DNA from: an uncultured Oceanisphaera sp.
Lineage (GTDB): Bacteria > Pseudomonadota > Gammaproteobacteria > Enterobacterales > Aeromonadaceae
Direction of reading: 5' to 3'
Length of the DNA: 64,000 nt
NCBI RefSeq assembly: GCF_947495715.1
Contig: NZ_CANLZU010000007.1
Location: forward strand, 62,001-126,000
The notes beneath the pieces are model-generated. The model was not told where the DNA came from and ran no database searches. It saw nothing but the letters and a program-made list of their open reading frames with translations. Positions 14,516 to 25,530 of the stretch are shown here, piece by piece (positions within the stretch are counted from its first letter, which is position 1; each line of letters opens with the position of its first letter). Both the position numbers and the translations under genes were made by a program.

Positions 14516-15433
14516 ATGAAAAAGTCGCTGGCTTCGGCCGTATTTACCCTTTCCATGGCCGTGGCCCAGCCCGGCCTGGCTGCCGACGCCATCGTGGTGT
14601 CGTCCAAAATCGACACCGAAGGCGGCCTGCTGGGCAATGTTATCTATCTGGCGCTGGAAGATGCAGGCCTCGATGTAGAGAATCGCTCCCAGCTGGGCGG
14701 CACCCCCATAGTGCGCAAGGCCATCACCTCCGGCGAAATCGATATCTATCCGGAATACACCGGCAACGCCGCCTTCTTCCATAACCGGGAAGCAGACTCG
14801 GCATGGAAAGACTTTCAACAGGGCTATGACCTGGCCAAACAGCTGGATTACGACCAGCACCAGCTGGTCTGGCTCACGCCCGCCAACGCCAACAACACCT
14901 GGGCCATCGCGCTGCGACAGGACATTGCCGATAGTAACCAGTTACACACCATGTCCGATTTCGGCCGTTATGTGACCCAGGGGGGCGATATCAAGCTGGC
15001 CGCCTCGGCCGAGTTTGTGTCCAGTCCGGCGGTGTTGCCCGCCTTTCAGCAGACCTATGACTTTACCCTGAGCGACGATCAGCTGCTGGTGCTGGCCGGG
15101 GGCAATACCGCCGCCACCATAAAGGCGGCGGCCCTGCAAACCGACAACACCAATGCGGCCATGGTATACGGTACCGATGGCGCCATCGCCTCGGTCGGCC
15201 TGGTGGTAATGGAAGACGACAAGGGCGTGCAGCCGGTCTACGCCCCGGCACCCATAGTGCGTGAAGAGATTCTGATGGCCCATCCGGAAATCGCCACCAT
15301 TCTGGAGCCGATTTTCCAGTCGCTGGACATCAAGACCCTGCAACAGCTGAACAGCCGCATCGCCATCGGCGGCGAAAGCGCCCAGGCGGTCGCCAGAAGC
15401 TACCTGTCCGACAAGGGCTTTTTGAAGGACTGA
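14516..15433 (+). CDS. osmF: Osmoprotectant ABC transporter substrate-binding protein OsmF (YehZ)
   Basis: 305 residues with a Sec signal peptide ending QPGLA-ADA. The rest is an OpuAC/OsmF-type periplasmic binding domain containing IVVSSKIDTEGGLLGNVI, the family's EIDIYPEYTGN stretch and TDGAIA. It captures glycine betaine or a related compatible solute in the periplasm for the YehYXW permease. The E. coli operon is yehZYXW. Here the same order holds, but 428 bp containing a repeat element separates osmF from yehY, so downstream expression may need read-through or a second promoter. Confidence 0.92.
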   Translation: MKKSLASAVFTLSMAVAQPGLAADAIVVSSKIDTEGGLLGNVIYLALEDAGLDVENRSQLGGTPIVRKAITSGEIDIYPEYTGNAAFFHNREADSAWKDFQQGYDLAKQLDYDQHQLVWLTPANANNTWAIALRQDIADSNQLHTMSDFGRYVTQGGDIKLAASAEFVSSPAVLPAFQQTYDFTLSDDQLLVLAGGNTAATIKAAALQTDNTNAAMVYGTDGAIASVGLVVMEDDKGVQPVYAPAPIVREEILMAHPEIATILEPIFQSLDIKTLQQLNSRIAIGGESAQAVARSYLSDKGFLKD

Positions 15434-15489
15434 TACTATCGGATTAAATATGCGTGCAGATTGCCAGTAACACCGTTAAACGTGCACGC

Positions 15490-15830
15490 ATCGGACAAAG
15501 GGCCCGCTCCGCCGACTCGCTGTGAATACATCCATGTACGCTCTCTGTTTCATCCCTGAAACAGAAGGTCGGCGGAGCAGATCCCTTTATCCTCCTTTAC
15601 GCTCAGGTGTCGCCTGTCGGTTGGCTGCTGAGAGACAACAGGGAACGACTCCCGCGACCGTGAAATGCCATGGACGGCATTTCCGAGCCCCAATGGGGCA
15701 GCTTGCTGCCGTGTATCTTTGTTGGGTAATGGACCGAATATCCAGTGAATATTCGCAGCCGTTACCCAGCAAAGATGGCTAGCCCAGTGGCGAGTCGGCG
15801 GAGCGGACCCTTTGTTCGGTACAGCCATTG
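15490..15830. repeat. Composite intergenic repeat E3 inside the osmF-yehY gap
   Basis: Fills 15434-15861. Unit II has perfect 11-bp arms at 15506-15516 and 15568-15578 around TACATCCATGTA and CTGTTTCATCCCTGAAACAG hairpins. After the linker comes an enlarged unit with arms CTCCCGCGAC (15649-15658) and GTCGGCGGAG (15794-15803) holding several hairpins. These are AAATGCC..GGCATTT, GCCCCAATGGGGC, GCAGCTTGCTGC and a nested long stem ATCTTTG..CAAAGAT that contains GAATAT/ATATTC. It seems to be a hybrid of a unit I half and a unit II half, with extra hairpins inserted. Confidence 0.85.
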
Positions 15831-15861
15831 GCAGTTTTTTAAGTATGTGTCAGGAGTTTTT

Positions 15862-17013
15862 TTGAAGTTTTTCAATCTGGACAAGGTCGGCGGCCTGCTC
15901 GGGTTCGCCCTGCTGCTGTCGCTGTTTGCCCTGCCCTTCGTCAGCCTGCAACCCAACCGCATCATGCCCGGCCAGAGCATCGGCCTGCTGGATGCGGCCG
16001 GTTTCAGCACCTTAACCCCCCTGCTGGTGATGTTAGCGCTTACCAGCCTGTTATCCCTTTTCAAAACGGCCATACGCACCCGTTTGGTGCTGACCGCTCT
16101 GACCCTGATAATGCTGATGTATACCGCCGGCGCCAGTGCAACACTGCTGCTGGTTGAGGCCAGCCCGCTGGCCCGGGTTTCCCTCAATGCCGGCTTCTGG
16201 CTGGCCATATTCTGGCTGGCGCTGCTGATCACCGATGTGGCCATCAAGCTGGCATTGCGCCCCCTGCCCCGGCTGGCGCTGGTTGCCCTGATCGTCGCCG
16301 CCGTCATGGCATTGCTGGCCTTCGGCCATGGCGACAACCTGTCGCTGTTGCGGGAATACCATAATCAGACCGATTTCTGGCGTCAGGCGATTCGCCATCT
16401 ACAGCTGTCACTGGGCAGCATAATACCGGCGCTGGTCGTCGGCATTCCGCTGGGTCTGTATTGCCACCGTTCCCAACGCCTGCGCAATGGCGTTTTTCCG
16501 GTGCTGAATGTGCTGCAAACCATCCCCAGCCTGGCCATGTTCGGCCTGCTGATGATCCCCCTCAGCCTGCTGGCCACCGGCTACCCGCTGCTGGCCGAGC
16601 TGGGCATTAGGGGCATAGGCGCGGCCCCGGCGGTGATTGCCCTGTTCTTCTATTCACTGCTGCCCATCGTCAGCAATACCGCACTGGGCTTCGACAGAAT
16701 AGACGCCCGAGTACGAGAAGCCGCTACCGGCATGGGCATGAATACCCGTCAGCGCCTGTGGCAGGTGGAGTTTCCGCTGGCCATGCCGGTGATTCTTACC
16801 GGGCTGCGGGTAGTGGTGACCATGAACATCGGTCTGGTGGCGGTGGCGGCCCTGGTGGGCGGCGGCGGCTTCGGTACCTACATCTTTCAGGGGCTGGGCC
16901 AGACCGCCACCGATCTGGTGATTCTCGGCGCCGTGCCCACCCTGTTGCTGGCCTTTTTGTTCGCCATCCTCATCGACACCCTGATAGCCCTGCAGAAAGG
17001 CGAAAATGCATGA
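15862..17013 (+). CDS. yehY: Osmoprotectant ABC transporter permease YehY
   Basis: 383 residues (about 385 in E. coli YehY) with an N-terminal group of membrane helices and a C-terminal ABC-permease domain carrying the EAATGMGMNTRQRLWQVEFPLA coupling helix. I use the TTG at 15862 because AGGAG lies 7-8 nt ahead. The longer in-frame reading to 15745 runs back into repeat E3 and gives a polar tail of the kind seen as spurious sequence across that repeat. It forms the membrane channel together with YehW, energised by YehX. Its stop overlaps the next start (ATGA), implying translational coupling. Confidence 0.9.
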   Translation: MKFFNLDKVGGLLGFALLLSLFALPFVSLQPNRIMPGQSIGLLDAAGFSTLTPLLVMLALTSLLSLFKTAIRTRLVLTALTLIMLMYTAGASATLLLVEASPLARVSLNAGFWLAIFWLALLITDVAIKLALRPLPRLALVALIVAAVMALLAFGHGDNLSLLREYHNQTDFWRQAIRHLQLSLGSIIPALVVGIPLGLYCHRSQRLRNGVFPVLNVLQTIPSLAMFGLLMIPLSLLATGYPLLAELGIRGIGAAPAVIALFFYSLLPIVSNTALGFDRIDARVREAATGMGMNTRQRLWQVEFPLAMPVILTGLRVVVTMNIGLVAVAALVGGGGFGTYIFQGLGQTATDLVILGAVPTLLLAFLFAILIDTLIALQKGENA

Positions 17014-17957
17014 TCGAAGTAAAAGCACTCGGCAAACAATTTGGCGCACAAATCGCCGTCAATGACATCTCGTTCAGGGTAGAACGTGGCCAGTTCTGCA
17101 TGCTGGTCGGCACCTCCGGCTGCGGCAAGTCCACTACCCTGCGCATGATCAACCGGCTGATAGAACCCAGCCAGGGCCAGATCCTGATCAACGAGCAGGA
17201 TGTCACCACATTGCCGCCGGAGCAGCTGCGCCGGCGCATCGGCTACGTCATTCAGGGAGTAGGCCTGTTCCCCCATCGCACCATTCATCACAACATCGCC
17301 ACCGTGCCCCGGCTGCTGGGCTGGAAAAAGGCGGATATCGATGCGCGGGTCACCGAGCTGCTGACCCTGTTCAAGCTGGATGCCGCCACCTTCGCCAACA
17401 AATACCCGCACCAGCTCTCCGGCGGCGAACAGCAGCGGGTTGGTGTGGCCCGGGCTCTGGCCGCCCGACCCGAACTGTTGCTGATGGACGAGCCCTTCGG
17501 CGCCCTGGATCCGCTGACCCGCGAACACCTGCAGGACGAGCTGCTGCGAGTACAAAAATTGCTGGGCATCACCATCATCATGGTGACTCACGATCTGGAA
17601 GAAGCGGTGAAGATGGCCGACGTGATTGCGGTAATGGACAAGGGCGAGTTGCTGCAGCTCGACAGCCCGGAGGCCCTGCTGCGCCAGCCCCGCGCCGGTT
17701 TTGTACAAAGCCTGGTGGGCGGACTGGACCGCTCCCTGCGCCTGCTGGCCATCAAGCAGGTAGGCCAGATAATGGCGCCCCTGCAACAGCCGTTGCCGCC
17801 TTCGGTACCAAGCATTATGGCCAGCGCCAATCTGCGCGACGCCATGGCATTGCTTATCTGGGAGCAAGCCGAGCTGCTGCAAGTACTGGATGCCAACGGC
17901 ATTGCCGTCGGCCAGTTATCGATGAATAATCTGCTGCAACAGGGTGCCCGGGCATGA
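17010..17957 (+). CDS. yehX: Osmoprotectant ABC transporter ATP-binding protein YehX
   Basis: 315 residues (308 in E. coli). The ABC ATPase domain shows Walker A GTSGCGKST, signature LSGGEQQRVGVARAL, Walker B LLLMDEPFGALD and the switch His in MVTHD. A short C-terminal extension follows. The start at 17010 overlaps the yehY stop by 4 nt and its own stop overlaps yehW by 4 nt, so the three genes are translationally coupled. It hydrolyses ATP at the cytoplasmic face to drive osmoprotectant import. Confidence 0.93.
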   Translation: MIEVKALGKQFGAQIAVNDISFRVERGQFCMLVGTSGCGKSTTLRMINRLIEPSQGQILINEQDVTTLPPEQLRRRIGYVIQGVGLFPHRTIHHNIATVPRLLGWKKADIDARVTELLTLFKLDAATFANKYPHQLSGGEQQRVGVARALAARPELLLMDEPFGALDPLTREHLQDELLRVQKLLGITIIMVTHDLEEAVKMADVIAVMDKGELLQLDSPEALLRQPRAGFVQSLVGGLDRSLRLLAIKQVGQIMAPLQQPLPPSVPSIMASANLRDAMALLIWEQAELLQVLDANGIAVGQLSMNNLLQQGARA

Positions 17958-18694
17958 GCAGCCGTTCTCCTGTCCGCTGGCTGGGGGTGGCGATCCCCCT
18001 GCTGCTGTTACTGATCATGACCCTCAAGATGCCATCGCTGGAGCCGCTGTTTCGCCCGCTGGTCGATGAACGGGCCCCGGCCATTTACGCCCGCGACAGC
18101 TTCCTGAATTTGCTGCTGTGGCATCTGGCGGCTGTATTCATCGCCATTTTCGGCGCCACCCTGGTGGCGCTGGGCGGCGGTATTCTGGTAACCCGTGCCG
18201 CCGGGCGGGAATTTCTGCCACTGGCCCGGGCCATCGCCAATCTGGGCCAGACCTTTCCGCCGGTGGCGGTACTGGCACTGGCGGTGCCGGCGCTGGGCTT
18301 CGGGCTGACCCCGACTCTGGTGGCGCTGTTTCTCTATGGCATGCTGCCCATTTATGAAAACACCGTTACCGGCCTGCAGCAGGTGCCGGCCAGCGTGCGC
18401 GAGGCGGCACGCGGAATGGGCATGAGCCCGCGCCAGCAGCTGTGGTCGGTGGAATTGCCGCTGGCACTGCCGATGATCATCGCCGGTATCCGTATCTCGC
18501 TGGTGATCAGCATCGGCACCGCCACCATAGGATCGACGGTGGCGGCCAAGGGCTTTGGAGAGGTGATTATTGCCGGCCTGCTGACCGACAACATGGCTTT
18601 CGTGCTGCAGGGCGGCATCATGGTGGCGCTGGTGGCCATTTTGATCGATGCCCTGTTTCAGCGGCTGGAACGGCGGCTGTCGCCGCCGGGCTGA
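17954..18694 (+). CDS. yehW: Osmoprotectant ABC transporter permease YehW
   Basis: 246 residues (243 in E. coli) with a BPD-type permease domain and the coupling motif EAARGMGMSPRQQLWSVELPLA, closely parallel to that of YehY. It is the second membrane subunit of the OsmF/YehYXW system and the last gene of the operon. It ends 4 bp before the stop of the convergent DJ-1/PfpI gene, with no room for a separate terminator. Confidence 0.92.
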   Translation: MSSRSPVRWLGVAIPLLLLLIMTLKMPSLEPLFRPLVDERAPAIYARDSFLNLLLWHLAAVFIAIFGATLVALGGGILVTRAAGREFLPLARAIANLGQTFPPVAVLALAVPALGFGLTPTLVALFLYGMLPIYENTVTGLQQVPASVREAARGMGMSPRQQLWSVELPLALPMIIAGIRISLVISIGTATIGSTVAAKGFGEVIIAGLLTDNMAFVLQGGIMVALVAILIDALFQRLERRLSPPG

Positions 18695-18698
18695 GGTG

Positions 18699-19379
18699 TC
18701 AGTGCTTCAATAGCGCCAGCAGGGCGCTGGCAGCCGGCTCGGAAGAGGCCGGGTTCTGGCCGGTGACCAGCAAACCATCGGTTTCCACATGCGGCTGCCA
18801 GTCATCGGCCCTGCGGTAATCGCCGCCGTTCTGGCGCAGCATCTCTTCCACCAGAAAAGGCACTATGGCGGTCAGTTGCACCGCTTCTTCTTCGCTGTTG
18901 GTAAAGCCGGTTACCCGCCTGCCGCTCACCAGCGGTTTACCCGCGCCGTCTTTGGCATGACGCAACACCGCCGGGGCGTGACACACCGCCGCCACCGGTT
19001 TGCCCGCCGCAGCCATGGCCTCGATTAACGCGATGGAGTCGCCATCTTCCGCCAGATCCCACAGTGGACCGTGACCGCCGGGATAAAACACCGCATCAAA
19101 GTCATTCACCGACAGATCGGCCAGCTTGTGGGTAGTGGCCAGCTCGGCCTGAGCGGCCGCATCGGCGCGAAAACGCTCGGTGGCCTCGGTCTGGGCATCG
19201 GTTGCATCGCTTTTCGGATCCAGCGGCGGCTGGCCCCCCTTGGGCGAAGCCAGAGTAATGCTAGCGCCCGCATCCTTGAATACGTAATAAGGAGCGGCAA
19301 ATTCTTCCAGCCAGAAACCGGTTTTCTCGCCGGTATCCCCCAGTTGGTCATGAGAGGTCAGTACCATCAAAATACGCAT
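18699..19379 (-). CDS. DJ-1/PfpI (type 1 glutamine amidotransferase-like, Hsp31-type) protein
   Basis: 226 residues. The DJ-1/PfpI fold is shown by YPGGHGPLWDL and the nucleophile elbow AVCHAP, where the Cys is the family's catalytic residue and the next His supports it. A glutamate near the N-terminus in TGFWLEE fits the Hsp31-like glyoxalase III triad. Such proteins convert methylglyoxal to lactate or act as deglycases or chaperones, and which applies is not clear. The gene is convergent with yehW, and repeat E4 lies upstream of its start. Confidence 0.85.
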   Translation of the reverse strand: MRILMVLTSHDQLGDTGEKTGFWLEEFAAPYYVFKDAGASITLASPKGGQPPLDPKSDATDAQTEATERFRADAAAQAELATTHKLADLSVNDFDAVFYPGGHGPLWDLAEDGDSIALIEAMAAAGKPVAAVCHAPAVLRHAKDGAGKPLVSGRRVTGFTNSEEEAVQLTAIVPFLVEEMLRQNGGDYRRADDWQPHVETDGLLVTGQNPASSEPAASALLALLKH

Positions 19380-19823: not shown

Positions 19824-21134
19824 TTACTCGGGTCGAGTCAGCCCCAGATGATCGCGCAGGGTGCTGCCTTCATATTCGGTGCGGAACAGGCCGCGGCGCT
19901 GCAGTTCAGGTACCACCTGATCGACAAAGTCCTCGATGCCGGCGGGCAGCGACGGTGGCATCAGGTTGAAACCGTCGGCACCCTCGTTTTGAAACCACAG
20001 CTCCATACGATCGGCAATAGACTCGGGCGTGCCCACCATGGTGCAGTGACCGCCACCGGCCGCCAGCCGACCCAACAGCTGCCGCACCGTGGGCTGTTCG
20101 GTCTCGATAATGCGCAGAATGGTGGCGAAACGGCCCTTGGGCCCGGTAAAGGCATCCAGCGACGGCAACGCCGGTACCGGCGCGTCCAGCTCCCAGCCGG
20201 AGCAGTCCTGCCCCACGTAGGTACTCAGCTGGCGCAGCGAGGCGGCGGCGGGCAGCAGCTCGTCCAGTTCCCGTTGCTTGGCCTGCGCCTCGGCTTCGGT
20301 AGACGCCACATAGGTCACCAGCCCCGGCATAATGGGCACATCGACGTTGCGGCCCGTTTCCTTCACCCGCCGTTTGATATCGCGATAGTAATCCTGAGCG
20401 GCGGGCAGATCGTAGGCCACGGCGTAAATGGCCTCGGCACACTTGGCCGCCAGCTCCCGGCCCTGATCGGAGGCACCGGCCTGAAACAGCACCGGGTGCC
20501 CCTGGGGCGGGCGCGGCACATTGAGCGGGCCGTCCACCAGAAAGAACTCGCCGTGGTGATTGATGGGCACCACCTTGTCGGGATCGGCATAGTGGCCGGC
20601 ACGATCCATCACCAGCGCATCTGTCTGCCAGGAATCCCACAGTTTGATCACCGCATCCACAAACTCCTCGGCCCGGCGATAACGCTCGGCGTGGGCCGGC
20701 ATGGCCTCATAACCATGGTTGCGGGCTTCCACATCGAACATGGAGGTCACAACGTTCCAGCCCATGCGGCCGTTGGAGATATGATCGAGCGAGGCCATCA
20801 TGCGCGCCGCATGAAAAGGCGTGAAAAAGGTGCTGGAAACGGTGCTGATAAAACCGATGCGATCGGTGGCCCGGCTCATGGCGGCCATGGCCGTCAACGG
20901 CTCCAGAAACCAGTAGTTGCCGTCCGCCACATTGCCGGTAGACTGACCGTCGGCGAAGAACACCGCATCCAGCTTGCCCCGTTCGGCGGTTTGCGCCAGC
21001 CGCTCGTAATAACGTATATCGCCCAACTGCTCTACCGCCGAGTCGGGGTGACGCCAGGCCGCCCTGTGATGACCGCAGCCAAACAAAAACAGGTTCAGGT
21101 GCATCATGCGCTGGTCTTGATTCCGGGCCGCCAT
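19824..21134 (-). CDS. NtaA/SnaA/DmoA-family FMN-dependent monooxygenase
   Basis: 436 residues of the luciferase-like (LLM) superfamily, nitrilotriacetate/dibenzothiophene/dimethyl sulfide monooxygenase branch. Typical motifs are MHLNLFLFGCGHHRAAWRH near the N-terminus, LDAVFFADGQ, SNGRMGWNVVTS and HPVLFQAGAS (flavin phosphate region). Such enzymes use FMNH2 from a separate reductase and O2 to break C-S or C-N bonds or oxygenate rings. The ATG at 21134 overlaps the upstream SDR stop as TGATG, so the two are translationally coupled and lie behind one TPP riboswitch. That places the reaction near thiamine metabolism. The substrate is unknown. Confidence 0.85.
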   Translation of the reverse strand: MAARNQDQRMMHLNLFLFGCGHHRAAWRHPDSAVEQLGDIRYYERLAQTAERGKLDAVFFADGQSTGNVADGNYWFLEPLTAMAAMSRATDRIGFISTVSSTFFTPFHAARMMASLDHISNGRMGWNVVTSMFDVEARNHGYEAMPAHAERYRRAEEFVDAVIKLWDSWQTDALVMDRAGHYADPDKVVPINHHGEFFLVDGPLNVPRPPQGHPVLFQAGASDQGRELAAKCAEAIYAVAYDLPAAQDYYRDIKRRVKETGRNVDVPIMPGLVTYVASTEAEAQAKQRELDELLPAAASLRQLSTYVGQDCSGWELDAPVPALPSLDAFTGPKGRFATILRIIETEQPTVRQLLGRLAAGGGHCTMVGTPESIADRMELWFQNEGADGFNLMPPSLPAGIEDFVDQVVPELQRRGLFRTEYEGSTLRDHLGLTRPE

Positions 21135-21907
21135 CAGTTTTTCACCAGGCCGCCGTCGACCACCAGATTCTGGCCGGTCACCGAGCGTGACCAGGGTGAG
21201 GCGAAGAACAGGGTGGCATCGGCAAACTCGGCGGGGGTCGTAACACGGCGCAACGGCGTAGCGGCAGCGATGTAATCGAACACCGCTTCGGGCGTGGCGG
21301 CCGAGGCATCGGTGGTGCGCAGCAGGCCGCCGGACACCATGTTGACGGTAATGCCGTCCGGGCCCAGATCCTGCGACAGGGTGCGGGTCAGAGACAGCAG
21401 CGCCGCCTTGGCGGCGGTGTAGTCGTGATAAGGCACCACCGGGTTCTGAAACAGGTTGGTGCCCACGTTGACGATACGGCCAAAGCCCGCCTCGCGCATG
21501 CCGGGCAAGGCAGCCTGAGTGGTGTTGAGGGCACCTTTGACCACACCTTCCAGCTGCTGGTTGAGATCTTCCCAACGCAGTTGATCCGCATGTGGCCGTG
21601 CATCGCCATTAAACGAAAAGGCCGGCAGGGCATTGTTGATGACGGTGGTGATCGGGCAGCCAAAATGCTCCCGCGCCTTTGCAAACAATGCTCGCACCGC
21701 ATCGGCATCGGTCACGTCGGCCTGCAGTGCCAGCGCACGATCGGGGGCTTCTGCCGCCAGCGTTGCTGCGGCCTCGGCGCTGTGCAGATAGTTGATTACC
21801 ACTCGCGCGCCTTCGCGCAGAAAGGCCCGCACCAGGTGTTCGCCCAGACCGCGGGCGCCGCCGGTAACCAGCACCAGCTGTTCGTTCAGATTGATGGACG
21901 TTTGCAT
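21134..21907 (-). CDS. SDR-family oxidoreductase in the TPP-riboswitch operon
   Basis: 257 residues, a classical short-chain dehydrogenase/reductase. It has the cofactor site VTGGARGLGE (residues about 14-23), the catalytic Tyr-x3-Lys as YTAAK and a terminal GQNLVVDGG. The usual NNAG is NNALP here, a small deviation. It resembles 3-oxoacyl-ACP reductase annotations, but the context argues against fatty acid synthesis. It is the first gene after a TPP riboswitch and is coupled to a flavin monooxygenase. AGAGGT precedes the ATG by 5 nt and sits inside a small hairpin. It presumably oxidises an alcohol or reduces a carbonyl in the same pathway as the monooxygenase. Confidence 0.86.
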   Translation of the reverse strand: MQTSINLNEQLVLVTGGARGLGEHLVRAFLREGARVVINYLHSAEAAATLAAEAPDRALALQADVTDADAVRALFAKAREHFGCPITTVINNALPAFSFNGDARPHADQLRWEDLNQQLEGVVKGALNTTQAALPGMREAGFGRIVNVGTNLFQNPVVPYHDYTAAKAALLSLTRTLSQDLGPDGITVNMVSGGLLRTTDASAATPEAVFDYIAAATPLRRVTTPAEFADATLFFASPWSRSVTGQNLVVDGGLVKN

Positions 21908-21912
21908 CGCTA

Positions 21913-21926
21913 CCTCTTGTTAGAGG
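21913..21926 (-). promoter_or_regulatory. Hairpin covering the SDR ribosome-binding site
   Basis: On the minus strand the sequence CCTCT-AACA-AGAGG forms a 5-bp stem whose right arm is the Shine-Dalgarno of the SDR gene. It lies between the TPP riboswitch and the ATG, so it could be the translational expression platform. Confidence 0.5.
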
Positions 21927-21960
21927 CGAAGGCATGGACTGGCAGAATACGCCGATAGCC

Positions 21961-22058
21961 GGAAGGCTGACATCCCTTCGCCAGTATGAACTGGATCAGG
22001 TTCGACGGGTGTTATCTCAGCCCTGCCGGCCTTTGGCCGCAAGACACCCCGTGTCACG
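21961..22058 (-). promoter_or_regulatory. TPP (THI-box) riboswitch upstream of the SDR/monooxygenase operon
   Basis: Read on the minus strand, GGGGTG is followed by a P3-like stem (GCGGCC..GGCC), the conserved CTGAGA, then ACCCGTCGAACCTGATC and TACTGGCGAAGGGATG. These are the hallmark THI-box positions that bind the pyrimidine and pyrophosphate of TPP. The aptamer ends 53 nt ahead of the SDR start. Excess TPP would be expected to shut the operon down. Confidence 0.93.
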
Positions 22059-22095
22059 TCCAGACCATAACATACCCCAGCGCCCGAGAGCGAGA

Positions 22096-22257: not shown

Positions 22258-23313
22258 ATGACCTCAACTATGACCGCAACTACAACCACACTGACCATCA
22301 CCCGCCCCGACGACTGGCACCTGCACCTGCGCGATGGCGAACAACTCAAAGACACGGTGCGCGATGCCAGCCGTTACCTGGGCCGCGCCCTCGTGATGCC
22401 CAACCTGCTGCCGCCGGCCACCACCACCGAGCTGGCACTGGCCTACTACGATCGCATCGTGGCGGTTCGTCCCCAGGGCAGCCGGTTCGAGCCGCTGATG
22501 AGCCTGTATCTGACCGATAAAACCGACCCGCAGGAAATCCGCACGGCCAAGGCCACCGGCAAGATTGTGGCCTGCAAGCTCTACCCGGCCGGCGCCACCA
22601 CCAACTCCGACTCCGGCGTGACCGATGTTAAAAACATCTACCCGGTGCTGGAAGCCATGCAGGAAACCGGCACCCTGCTGCTGGTGCACGGCGAGGTGAC
22701 CGATCCGAGCATCGATATCTTCGACCGGGAAAAGGTGTTCCTCGACACCGTGCTGCCGGATGTGGTGCGCGACTTCCCCGGGCTGAAAATCGTGCTGGAG
22801 CACATCACCACCGAGCACGCGGTCAACTTCGTGGAGCAAGCCGGCGATAACGTGGCGGCCACCATTACCGCTCACCACCTGCTGTTCAACCGCAATCACA
22901 TGCTGGTGGGCGGCATTCGCCCGCACTTCTACTGCCTGCCCATTCTCAAGCGCAACACCCACCAGCAGGCGCTGGTGCGGGCAGCAGCCAGCGGTAACAA
23001 GAAGTTCTTCATGGGTACCGACTCGGCGCCGCACTTTCAGCATCGCAAAGAAGCCGCCTGCGGCTGTGCCGGTGCCTACACCTCCCACGCCGCCGTGGAA
23101 CTGTATGCCGAAGCCTTCGAGGAAGCCGGTGCGCTGGACAAGCTGGAAGCCTTTACCAGCCACAACGGCCCCGACTTCTACGGCCTGCCCCGCAATGCCG
23201 ACACCATCACCCTGGTGAGAGAAAGCTGGACCGTTGACGCCACCCTGCCGCTGGGCGGCGATCAGCTGGTGCCGATTCGCGCCGGTGAAACCATCGACTG
23301 GATGGTGAAATAA
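22258..23313 (+). CDS. pyrC: Dihydroorotase PyrC
   Basis: 351 residues, class II (monofunctional) dihydroorotase, the third step of de novo pyrimidine synthesis (carbamoyl aspartate to dihydroorotate). Zinc ligands are in [12 protein letters not shown]. The Lys to be carboxylated is in [13 protein letters not shown], further His ligands are in VHGE and EHIT, and the catalytic Asp is in GTDSAPH. The C-terminal AGAYTSHAA loop region is also present. The ATG at 22258 is taken as start; 22267 is an equally plausible in-frame choice matching the E. coli N-terminus (MTA). A tight terminator follows. Confidence 0.95.
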
Positions 23314-23755: not shown

Positions 23756-23888
23756 GGTTCATGGATTCCCGCCTGCGCGAAAATGACAAAAAACATGACG
23801 AAAATAACGAATATCTGTCACTGCCGCGGCCATCGGTTTCCGGCCTTTGATTGACAACCATCGGCAGTCTCTCTACTCTCTTGACGCT

Positions 23889-23978
23889 ATTCCTGGGGGA
23901 GCCTGACCGGCTGAGACTCTGCAATTTACTGCAGTAACCCTTCGAACCTGATCCGGGTAATGCCGGCGAAGGGAAGGA
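23889..23978 (+). promoter_or_regulatory. TPP (THI-box) riboswitch upstream of the SSS symporter
   Basis: Conserved GGGGGAGCC, GGCTGAGACT, a P3-like variable stem (CTGCAATTTACTGCAG), ACCCTTCGAACCTGATC and TGCCGGCGAAGGGA follow in order, the complete THI-box pattern. After it come two hairpins before the symporter start, GGTAGCCA/TGGCTACC (24031-24051) and TTGCCTGTTACAGGCAA (24062-24078). The second lies next to the ribosome site GGGAG and may serve in translational control. Confidence 0.95.
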
Positions 23979-24090
23979 AATGATTGATCCTCACTCTCCC
24001 TCCCAATCTGCCCGTTGTTGCCCGGCACCAGGTAGCCAATGAATGGCTACCATCGTCATGCTTGCCTGTTACAGGCAAAGGGAGAACAAC

Positions 24091-25530
24091 ATGCTGGACA
24101 CCACCGCCGCGATTCTGTGGCTCTGCTTATTTGCCGCCGTCTTTGCCATACCCGGCCTGCTTTATGCCCGCCGCCGGCAGGACAAGCTGGAAGACTTTAT
24201 CGTGGCCCGCAACAGCCAGAGTGGCAGCGCCACCATGCTGACCCTGCTGGCCACCACCATGGGTACCTGGATTCTGTTTGGCCCGGCCCAGGCCGCCACC
24301 TGGGGCGGCATTGGTGCCATTACCGGCTACGCCCTCGGCGTGCTGGTGCCACGGCTTATCATGATTCCGCTCGGCGGCCGCATTCGCGAGCTGATGCCCG
24401 AAGGCCACACCCTGACCGAATTCGTGCTCGGCCGCTATGGCCGCGGCATGTACGGTTTTGTGCTGGTGATCATGATGTTCTACCTGTTTATCTCACTCAC
24501 CGCCGGCCTGACCGCCATCGCCCAGATGGTGGCACTGCTGGCACCGGTACCGCTGTGGGTGACCGCCGGCATCGTCATGGGCGCTACCCTGCTCTATACC
24601 CTGTACGGCGGGCTGCGGGTCACCATCTTTACCGACCGGGTGCAGATGCTGGTGATACTGCCGTTTTTGCTGCTGTTGATGATGTTCGGCTGGCAAGCCA
24701 CCGGCGGGCTAACACCGATCATCGCCGGACTGCAGGAAAAAGCCCCGCAGTTGCTGAATCCGCTGGATACTACCGGGCTCAAGTCCGGGCTGACCTTTTT
24801 TATTGCGGTGGTGCTGACCGGCCTCTTCTATCAGGGTACCTGGCAGCGGGTGTTTGCCGCACGAGACAACAAGGTGATCCGCAACGGCTTCATTCTGAGC
24901 GGCCTGATCAGCTTTCCGATCATCTTCATCATGGGGCTGTTCGGTCTGGCATTCGTGGGGCTGGATCTGCCCGGTGACGGTTCGGTTGCCCTGTTCAGCG
25001 TCTTGATGCCGAACATGCCGCTGTGGTTTGCCATCGGCCTGCTGCCCTTTGGTCTGGCGCTGATCATGAGCAGTGCCGACTCCACCATCAGCGGTCTGTC
25101 CAGCATGATGGTGGTGGATCTGCGCCGCCTGCTGCCGAACATCGGCGCCCACAAGCTGCTTGGGCTGTCGCGCTGGCTGATCGTGCTGCTGTCGATTCCG
25201 GTGCTGGTGGTCGCCTCCCAGGGTTTCAGCGTGCTGTATCTGTTTCTGCTGGCCGATTTGCTGTGCTGTGCCGCCGCCTTCCCGGTGTTCTTCGGTTTCT
25301 ACAGCGCCCGCTACCAGAGCTATAACGCCGTACTCAGCACCGCGGCCGGGCTGCTGGCCGGCCTCTGGCTATTCCCGGCACCAGGCGAGCCACTCACCTA
25401 TCTGCTGGAGTCCTTCCTGCTGGCCACTCTTGTGCCGGTGCTGGTGTCTTGCCTGCTGATGCTGCTGCCGAACCGTTCGGCGTTCGACTTTTCGATACTG
25501 CGCCAGCGTATCCGCAGCCTGGAAAGCTGA
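24091..25530 (+). CDS. SSS-family sodium:solute symporter under TPP riboswitch (ThiV-like candidate)
   Basis: 479 residues with about 13 membrane segments, a sodium:solute symporter (SLC5/PanF-like). N-terminal topology and the LEDFIVARNSQSG, TTMGTWILFGPAQAATWGG and GTWQRVFAARD stretches fit the family. The ATG at 24091 follows GGGAG. An earlier in-frame ATG at 24043 overlaps the leader hairpins. A TPP riboswitch directly upstream argues that it imports thiamine or a precursor (HMP or thiazole), as reported for PanF-like 'ThiV' transporters with THI-boxes. The substrate is inferred from regulation, not from a motif. It seems monocistronic. Confidence 0.85.
   Translation: MLDTTAAILWLCLFAAVFAIPGLLYARRRQDKLEDFIVARNSQSGSATMLTLLATTMGTWILFGPAQAATWGGIGAITGYALGVLVPRLIMIPLGGRIRELMPEGHTLTEFVLGRYGRGMYGFVLVIMMFYLFISLTAGLTAIAQMVALLAPVPLWVTAGIVMGATLLYTLYGGLRVTIFTDRVQMLVILPFLLLLMMFGWQATGGLTPIIAGLQEKAPQLLNPLDTTGLKSGLTFFIAVVLTGLFYQGTWQRVFAARDNKVIRNGFILSGLISFPIIFIMGLFGLAFVGLDLPGDGSVALFSVLMPNMPLWFAIGLLPFGLALIMSSADSTISGLSSMMVVDLRRLLPNIGAHKLLGLSRWLIVLLSIPVLVVASQGFSVLYLFLLADLLCCAAAFPVFFGFYSARYQSYNAVLSTAAGLLAGLWLFPAPGEPLTYLLESFLLATLVPVLVSCLLMLLPNRSAFDFSILRQRIRSLES

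What the first reader, a model, noticed from the sequence alone, without database searches (positions are those of the whole stretch)
19824..22058. TPP riboswitch controls a flavin monooxygenase plus SDR operon
A complete THI-box (minus strand, 22058-21961) precedes an SDR and an NtaA/DmoA-type FMN monooxygenase, coupled by a TGATG overlap. Seen directly: the riboswitch consensus and the gene order. Known: TPP riboswitches control thiamine synthesis, salvage and transport genes. Inference: the pair oxidises a thiamine-related compound, such as a degraded or oxidised thiazole/pyrimidine or a side-chain alcohol, to recover a usable precursor. LLM monooxygenases cut C-S and C-N bonds, which suits thiamine breakdown products. 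I know no established pathway with this pair.
Basis: partly seen in the sequence, partly recalled or inferred. Interest (0 to 1): 0.82.

Follow-up and report, generated by a model that had tools for sequence, protein, structure and literature searches.

The report
Vitamin B1-controlled pyrimidine salvage gene module
A vitamin-B1-sensing RNA switch controls an unusual pair of oxidation and reduction enzymes that usually travels with a similarly controlled transporter through many bacteria, and the set probably takes up a broken piece of vitamin B1 and turns it back into a usable building block.

Summary
In detail: RF00059 hits 22061-21956(-), 67.6 bits, before an SDR and an NtaA/DmoA-type FMN monooxygenase (LLM) overlapping at TGATG. 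Of the 80 best LLM relatives (73-97% identity), 78 carry a TPP aptamer by model R1, 69 have the SDR directly upstream and 74 hold the SSF. In 37 loci of remoter SDR or LLM relatives R1 found none in the short flanks held; two of these later proved to belong to TPP-led thiM-thiE-thiD-SDR clusters. Of 51 distinct module genomes examined, 16 lack ThiC and 15 of those keep ThiG; in a class control 8 of 32 ThiC-less genomes do. This points to the pyrimidine half of thiamin. Best reading: TPP-repressed uptake of a pyrimidine vitamer, oxidative cleavage by the LLM to an aldehyde, reduction by the SDR to HMP. The thiamin link is strong, the pyrimidine direction supported, substrate and chemistry inferred. 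My paper searches showed no description of this set; the library is incomplete.

The parts
21956..22061 (-). TPP riboswitch aptamer (RF00059) of the SDR-LLM operon
   Evidence: cmscan 67.6 bits, gathering 54.3; an RF00059 hit upstream of the SDR in 18 of 18 same-genus loci, own included
21912..21932 (-). Proposed expression platform: CCTTCGCC (21932-21925) can pair with aptamer strand GGCGAAGG (21982-21975); overlapping GCCTCT (21927-21922) can pair with the Shine-Dalgarno strand AGAGGT (21917-21912); the two pairings exclude each other
   Evidence: read from the sequence; the Shine-Dalgarno hairpin is in the fold, whose energy is not unusual (z -0.66). Of 70 loci examined, 57 held the aptamer motif and 47 of these have a helix of 7 bp or more; per-locus shuffle p 0.005-0.355 for those 47
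21134..21907 (-). SDR oxidoreductase, 257 aa, NF006393 (PRK08642) family
   Evidence: NCBIfam 445.2 bits against 292; Pfam PF13561
19824..21134 (-). FMN-dependent monooxygenase of the NtaA/DmoA (TIGR03860) LLM family, 436 aa, TGATG overlap with the SDR
   Evidence: 544.9 bits against 279.7; AlphaFold model mean pLDDT 90.5; nearest folds BdsA, CmoJ/YtnJ, NtaA
23885..23991 (+). Second TPP riboswitch aptamer, upstream of the SSF transporter
   Evidence: cmscan 77.5 bits
24088..25530 (+). Sodium:solute symporter (SSF), 480 aa, candidate pyrimidine-vitamer or thiamin importer
   Evidence: PF00474, 69.3 bits against 22.8; homologue in 74 of 80 LLM loci, divergent upstream in 63 and convergent downstream in 11
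22258..23313 (+). pyrC (dihydroorotase), between the two arms in this lineage; not part of the module
   Evidence: TIGR00856, 452.8 bits; among the 80 loci a pyrC hit appears only in L069-L074, L084 and L086, titled Oceanimonas, Oceanisphaera or Aeromonadales

Best explanation
SSF, SDR and LLM form one thiamin-salvage module, switched off by TPP. Shown by sequence: two TPP aptamers, and an SDR-arm leader able to form either an anti-Shine-Dalgarno hairpin or a helix with the aptamer, so TPP most likely blocks translation (inferred). Shown by comparison: genes and aptamers stay together across many Gamma- and Betaproteobacteria. Inferred: when TPP is short, the SSF imports a pyrimidine vitamer; the LLM, with FMNH2 from a general flavin reductase and O2, oxidises the CH2 carbon next to the pyrimidine ring and releases 4-amino-2-methylpyrimidine-5-carbaldehyde; the SDR reduces this aldehyde to HMP; ThiD and ThiE then make thiamin phosphate. 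Likely substrates are AmMP, FAMP or another N-substituted or opened thiamin fragment. This would be an oxygen-dependent alternative to TenA/YlmB. My odds: thiamin-salvage role about 0.85; pyrimidine half about 0.65; this two-step chemistry about 0.35.
For: TPP aptamers in 78 of 80 LLM loci by model R1: 60 on the SDR/LLM arm, 75 on the SSF arm, 57 on both. In 37 loci of remoter relatives (9 SDR, 28 LLM, about 1.5 kb held each side) R1 found none at E up to 1. LLM orthologues form a distinct group: in 398 genomes of the phylum identity falls from 74% (G420) to 51% or less, and at 38 positions at least 29 of 30 module LLMs share a residue that none of 8 outgroup LLMs has. Of the same 398 genomes, only the own one and G420 hold the SSF at 58% or more. 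SDR homologues (62-63%) close a TPP-riboswitch thiM-thiE-thiD-SDR cluster in two other genomes, with no LLM in the 12 kb held. Of 51 distinct module genomes 16 lack ThiC; 15 of the 16 keep ThiG; control 8 of 32, Fisher p 6e-6, uncorrected for kinship. Eight genomes lack both ThiC and a TenA hit, all eight with ThiD over the cut-off. All 16 ThiC-less genomes have a ThiE hit, 15 over the cut-off. The only other SSF match (E up to 1e-70) in the 398 is a TPP-led symporter of a 1.2 Mb genome that looks like Pelagibacterales (34% identity). SAR11 ThiV is the proposed HMP transporter (PMC11452348, passages). Solved LLM relatives cut C-S and C-N bonds; CmoJ releases an aldehyde (PMC10863075, passages).
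Against: 35 of 51 module genomes, this one included, have ThiC, and 30 of 51 have TenA, so the module is not tied to auxotrophy or to lack of TenA. In 10 of 80 loci, all titled Achromobacter, no SDR lies next to the LLM (one, L093, shows a partial SDR beyond the SSF). In 18 loci, also all Achromobacter, R1 found an aptamer on the SSF arm only. L137 and L144 show none in the DNA held. The SDR also occurs at 66-74% identity in L029-L034 without thi genes or an aptamer in the DNA held (12 kb around L034). Taken singly, most switch helices are not beyond chance (median shuffle p 0.085). There is no assay and no substrate, and the SSF is only 34% identical to the putative ThiV.
Confidence: 0.55

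Rival explanations
1. The SSF imports thiamin or HMP itself, and the LLM and SDR repair a damaged or oxidised thiazole or whole thiamin rather than making HMP.
For: Solved LLM relatives include C-S cutting enzymes (PMC10863075 passages); in Marinobacter L082 and L083 a thiG homologue follows the LLM.
Against: Module genomes that lack ThiC keep ThiG in 15 of 16; the reverse (ThiC present, ThiG missing) occurs in 3 of 51, all MAGs. The genome of L083 (G465), with thiG beside the module, lacks ThiC.
Confidence: 0.2
2. The LLM and SDR make HMP from a compound outside thiamin breakdown, an O2-dependent substitute for ThiC.
For: ThiC-less module genomes keep most of the rest of the pathway: ThiG in 15 of 16, ThiD and ThiE hits in 16 of 16; eight also lack a TenA hit.
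Against: A transporter accompanies the LLM in 74 of 80 loci and most carriers have ThiC (35 of 51), which fits salvage better.
Confidence: 0.12
3. The SDR and LLM degrade a toxic thiamin or HMP antimetabolite, and TPP control merely times the defence.
For: Solved LLM relatives include enzymes of xenobiotic breakdown, such as EDTA and hexachlorobenzene monooxygenases.
Against: Expression would rise only when TPP is low, together with an importer that could admit the toxin (inference).
Confidence: 0.06
4. The SDR is an ordinary 3-oxoacyl-ACP reductase and the LLM a general catabolic monooxygenase that happen to sit behind a THI-box.
For: NF006393 is labelled 3-oxoacyl-ACP reductase.
Against: Conserved riboswitch-gene linkage over many genera and the separate thiM-thiE-thiD-SDR clusters.
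Confidence: 0.05

Closest known systems
TenA/YlmB pyrimidine salvage (FAMP to AmMP to HMP)
   Same: Would recover HMP from broken thiamin; described in PMC10470507 (passages read)
   Different: TenA is a PF03070 protein; here an FMN monooxygenase and an SDR would do the work; eight carriers have neither ThiC nor a TenA hit
SAR11 ThiV, sodium:solute symporter proposed for HMP
   Same: SSF family with a TPP riboswitch upstream (PMC11452348 passages); 34% identity to the TPP-led symporter of a probable Pelagibacterales genome
   Different: [quoted passage not shown] here SDR and LLM accompany it
CmoJ (YtnJ) alkylcysteine sulfoxide C-S monooxygenase
   Same: Nearest solved relative by sequence profile and second entry by fold; salvage by oxidative dealkylation that yields an aldehyde (PMC10863075 passages)
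   Different: 37% identity; gene context differs; substrate pockets not compared
NtaA/EmoA (C-N cutting) and DmoA/DszA/BdsA (C-S cutting) monooxygenases
   Same: TIGR03860 family and fold
   Different: Catabolic (recalled); I recall no case under a TPP riboswitch
oarX and thiV of Rodionov et al. 2002 (recalled, paper not seen; no thiamin paper with oarX among the rows listed)
   Same: I recall an SDR-like gene and an SSF gene listed as THI-box regulated
   Different: I recall no LLM partner or pyrimidine-aldehyde role; this could lower the novelty

Membership tests
TPP riboswitch RF00059 | Covariance-model score over the gathering cut-off 54.3 | tested here: met
   67.6 and 77.5 bits
TPP riboswitch RF00059 | Control of a downstream gene in response to TPP | not testable with these tools
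   Only folds and exclusive pairings were examined
NtaA/DmoA LLM monooxygenases (TIGR03860) | Profile score over the curated cut-off | tested here: met
   544.9 against 279.7
NtaA/DmoA LLM monooxygenases (TIGR03860) | FMNH2 and O2 dependent oxidation with a separate flavin reductase | not testable with these tools
   No flavin reductase among the neighbouring window proteins that I scanned; a general reductase is assumed
SDR family NF006393 | Profile score over the curated cut-off | tested here: met
   445.2 against 292; filed here by profile only, not as a proven 3-oxoacyl-ACP reductase
3-oxoacyl-ACP reductase with classical SDR active site | Catalytic Ser about 13 residues before the Tyr of YxxxK (motif recalled) | tested here: not met
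   Thr150 at that place in all 19 aligned members; Tyr163 and Lys167 are kept
ThiV-type SSF | PF00474 and upstream TPP riboswitch | tested here: met
   69.3 bits against 22.8; aptamer 23885-23991
ThiV-type SSF | Orthology with SAR11 ThiV | tested here: inconclusive
   34% over 437 aa to the symporter of G419, a genome the tool does not name
TenA/YlmB salvage | TENA_THI-4 domain | tested here: not met
   In Pfam the LLM matched only Bac_luciferase and the SDR four SDR-type or epimerase families; the own genome has a separate TenA hit

The most novel reading that the evidence does not exclude
A so far undescribed, oxygen-dependent route to the thiamin pyrimidine: an FMN monooxygenase and a short-chain reductase turn an imported pyrimidine into HMP by oxidative dealkylation and aldehyde reduction, letting bacteria without ThiC and TenA live on degraded thiamin.
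Probability: 0.35. Interest if true: 0.88.

Novelty: new variant of a known kind. Interest (0 to 1): 0.72.

Why it matters
[quoted passage not shown] A riboswitch-defined set of transporter plus two redox enzymes, found in ThiC-less Marinobacter, Marinomonas, Halomonas, Vreelandella and Candidimonas genomes among others, gives direct candidates for that gap and adds a possible oxidative chemistry to vitamin salvage.

Tried and rejected
Paper searches with little result. oarX with thiamin and riboswitch (20 of 803 papers listed, none of them with oarX); oarX alone (20 of 35 listed, mostly sheep genomics, none on thiamin); LLM or SDR terms with TPP riboswitch or thi genes (4 of 4 listed; 25 of 810 listed, none with nitrilotriacetate monooxygenase; 11 of 11, none with flavin-dependent monooxygenase; 9 of 9). 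None of the rows shown describes this gene set. One search looked for the pyrimidine aldehyde in thiamin papers; none of the 12 of 522 listed held those terms.

Downstream of the LLM I saw no gene that recurs over the 80 loci (read by eye), so no fourth member is claimed. The nearby PfpI/DJ-1 gene (18699-19379) scores 37.4 against 131.25 for TIGR01383, named not_thiJ; a look-alike follows the LLM in L068, L073, L074 and L084; rejected as part of the module. Thiazole salvage as main role was set aside on the ThiC/ThiG pattern. MAFFT misaligned the variable stem in the mixed TPP set A3, so a more uniform set A4 was used for model R1. The unliganded fold of the whole leader is not used as evidence.

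Rows dropped: 50 of the 80 loci, plus G000 and G420, went to the ThiC, ThiG, TenA and ThiD searches (52 handles) because of a limit of 50 loci. G420 and G498 gave identical coordinates and are counted once, so n is 51. Completeness is not stated for the genomes reached through loci, and several are MAGs.

Full report
What is there. The window holds two TPP riboswitches at gathering threshold, not one: 21956-22061(-) and 23885-23991(+). The first precedes an SDR (21134-21907) and an LLM monooxygenase (19824-21134), overlapping at TGATG. The second precedes an SSF transporter (24088-25530). pyrC lies between the two arms. The own genome has four TPP aptamers over the cut-off: these two, one before thiC (L006; thiC, ThiD, ThiE and ThiG hits on that contig) and one before thiD (L002). 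A fifth, weak match (31 bits) lies before a set that I read as thiBPQ-like (L008). So this bacterium carries ThiC, ThiG, ThiD, ThiE and TenA and probably makes thiamin de novo.

How the switch probably works. After the aptamer, CCTTCGCC can pair with the aptamer strand GGCGAAGG, and the overlapping GCCTCT with the Shine-Dalgarno strand AGAGGT. The two helices exclude each other, which suits translational control. The Shine-Dalgarno hairpin appears in the fold of that stretch, whose energy is ordinary for its composition (z -0.66). In one search I examined 70 loci with a forward SDR: 13 lacked the searched motif, and 47 of the other 57 have a helix of at least 7 pairs. Singly most are not beyond chance (median shuffle p 0.085, 16 of 57 at 0.05 or less), so only the recurrence carries weight, and related loci are not independent.

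Conservation. In 61 genomes of the family the SDR query at E up to 1e-60 matches 18, all of the own genus (23 genomes of that genus in the sample); the 18 loci, own included, all carry an RF00059 hit. In 398 genomes over the phylum 41 hold an LLM at E up to 1e-100, but only the own genome and G420 exceed 51% identity. G420 (74%) again has the SSF, two TPP aptamers, SDR and LLM. A scan of genome contigs with an alignment of ten LLMs (A1) kept the best 80 of 429 relatives, 73-97% identical, from Oceanimonas, Oceanisphaera, Marinobacter, Pseudomonas, Halomonas, Marinomonas, Granulosicoccus, Methylobacillus, Achromobacter and other Alcaligenaceae among others. With model R1, 78 of 80 have an aptamer, 60 on the SDR/LLM arm, 75 on the SSF arm, 57 on both; the 18 with the SSF arm only are all Achromobacter. 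A plain pattern search found 73 of 80, with 0 hits in one mononucleotide shuffle of each locus. R1 was built largely from this operon, so eight of the 80 loci were checked with Rfam: six have RF00059 hits, L137 and L144 none, and in L107 only the SSF-arm aptamer reached the cut-off. The SDR lies directly upstream of the LLM in 69 of 80 by my distance rule; in L143 it lies slightly further off; the other ten are Achromobacter loci. The SSF is in 74 of 80; some of the missing ones end at a contig end.

Control. R1 on 37 loci of remoter relatives (9 SDR loci, 28 LLM loci, about 1.5 kb on each side) found nothing at E up to 1. This holds only for the DNA held: for two of the nine SDR loci (L035, L036), longer stretches showed an RF00059 hit 2.2-2.3 kb upstream of the SDR, in front of thiM. 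The longer stretch around L034 showed none. This does not change my odds, because the two exceptions are thiamin clusters.

An independent link for the SDR. In G159 and G373 (same phylum, one family of their own, two genera) an SDR homologue (62-63%) is the last gene of thiM-thiE-thiD-SDR, with the aptamer before thiM and no LLM match in 12 kb. They look alphaproteobacterial to me (inference). SDR homologues at 66-74% in L029-L034 show no such link in the DNA held.

Which half of thiamin. For 52 handles (51 distinct genomes) carrying the module I asked for pathway genes. ThiC: absent in 16. ThiG: absent in 4, only one of them ThiC-less. So 15 genomes are ThiC-minus and ThiG-plus, and 3, all MAGs, the reverse. 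ThiD is found in 49 of 51, ThiE in 16 of 16 ThiC-less genomes, G484 below the cut-off. TenA is found in 30 of 51; eight genomes lack both ThiC and a TenA hit: those of L098, L113, L117, L119, L120, L126, L132, L139. In a class-wide control of 140 genomes, own included, 32 lack ThiC and 8 of these keep ThiG (set difference). Fisher p 6e-6 for 15 of 16 against 8 of 32; carriers are related and some are MAGs, so this is support, not proof. Five of the eight bear no MAG or uncultured label: Marinomonas algarum, Candidimonas humi, Candidimonas nitroreducens, Vreelandella jeotgali and Alcaligenaceae bacterium CGII-47.

The transporter. The only other SSF match at E up to 1e-70 in 398 genomes is in G419, a 1.2 Mb one-contig genome (34% identity, TPP aptamer upstream), whose size and neighbours look like Pelagibacterales (inference). 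ThiV of SAR11 is the proposed HMP transporter and has a TPP riboswitch (PMC11452348, passages); PMC10881298 lists thiV under pyrimidine(/B1) transport (passages).

The enzymes. The LLM model (pLDDT 90.5) matches BdsA, CmoJ/YtnJ, NtaA, LadA, RcaE and EmoA. CmoJ salvages cysteine by a dealkylation that ends in an aldehyde (PMC10863075, passages). At 38 positions the module LLMs differ consistently from eight outgroup LLMs. An LLM that oxidises the CH2 between ring and nitrogen of AmMP or FAMP would give a pyrimidine aldehyde, and the neighbouring SDR would be a natural reductase to HMP. That step is inference. In the SDR the place of the usual catalytic Ser holds Thr150 in all 19 aligned members (motif recalled).

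Known or new. My searches of the open library showed, in the rows listed, no paper describing this set. The LLM association and the pyrimidine reading seem new.

Noticed in passing
window 23885-25530 (+): Second, stronger TPP riboswitch with an SSF transporter, not mentioned in the finding; followed up as part of the module.
   Followed up: yes
L008 6741-6831 (G000:C12:119740-119830): Weak TPP match (31 bits, below the cut-off) in front of a set that I read as thiBPQ-like in the own genome; possibly a decayed or divergent aptamer.
   Followed up: partly
L152 3909-7012 and L153 8373-5272: TPP riboswitch followed by thiM-thiE-thiD-SDR in two genomes that look alphaproteobacterial: the SDR without the LLM.
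   Followed up: yes
L096, L100, L103, L105, L106, L108, L111, L112, L114 (Achromobacter): LLM directly beside the SSF riboswitch arm with no SDR next to it; in L093 a partial SDR lies on the other side of the SSF. L106 carries a second SSF-aptamer-LLM piece.
   Followed up: partly
L132: Contig titled uncultured Micrococcaceae carries an SDR-LLM unit of the module type with an RF00059 hit: binning error or gene transfer.
   Followed up: no
window 14516-18694 (+): OsmF-type glycine betaine ABC transporter genes next to the module; ATPase hits also lie downstream of the LLM in L068-L074, L084 and L086.
   Followed up: no
window 18699-19379 (-): PfpI/DJ-1 family gene downstream of the LLM; a look-alike follows the LLM in L068, L073, L074 and L084; far below the cut-off of TIGR01383, not_thiJ.
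   Followed up: partly
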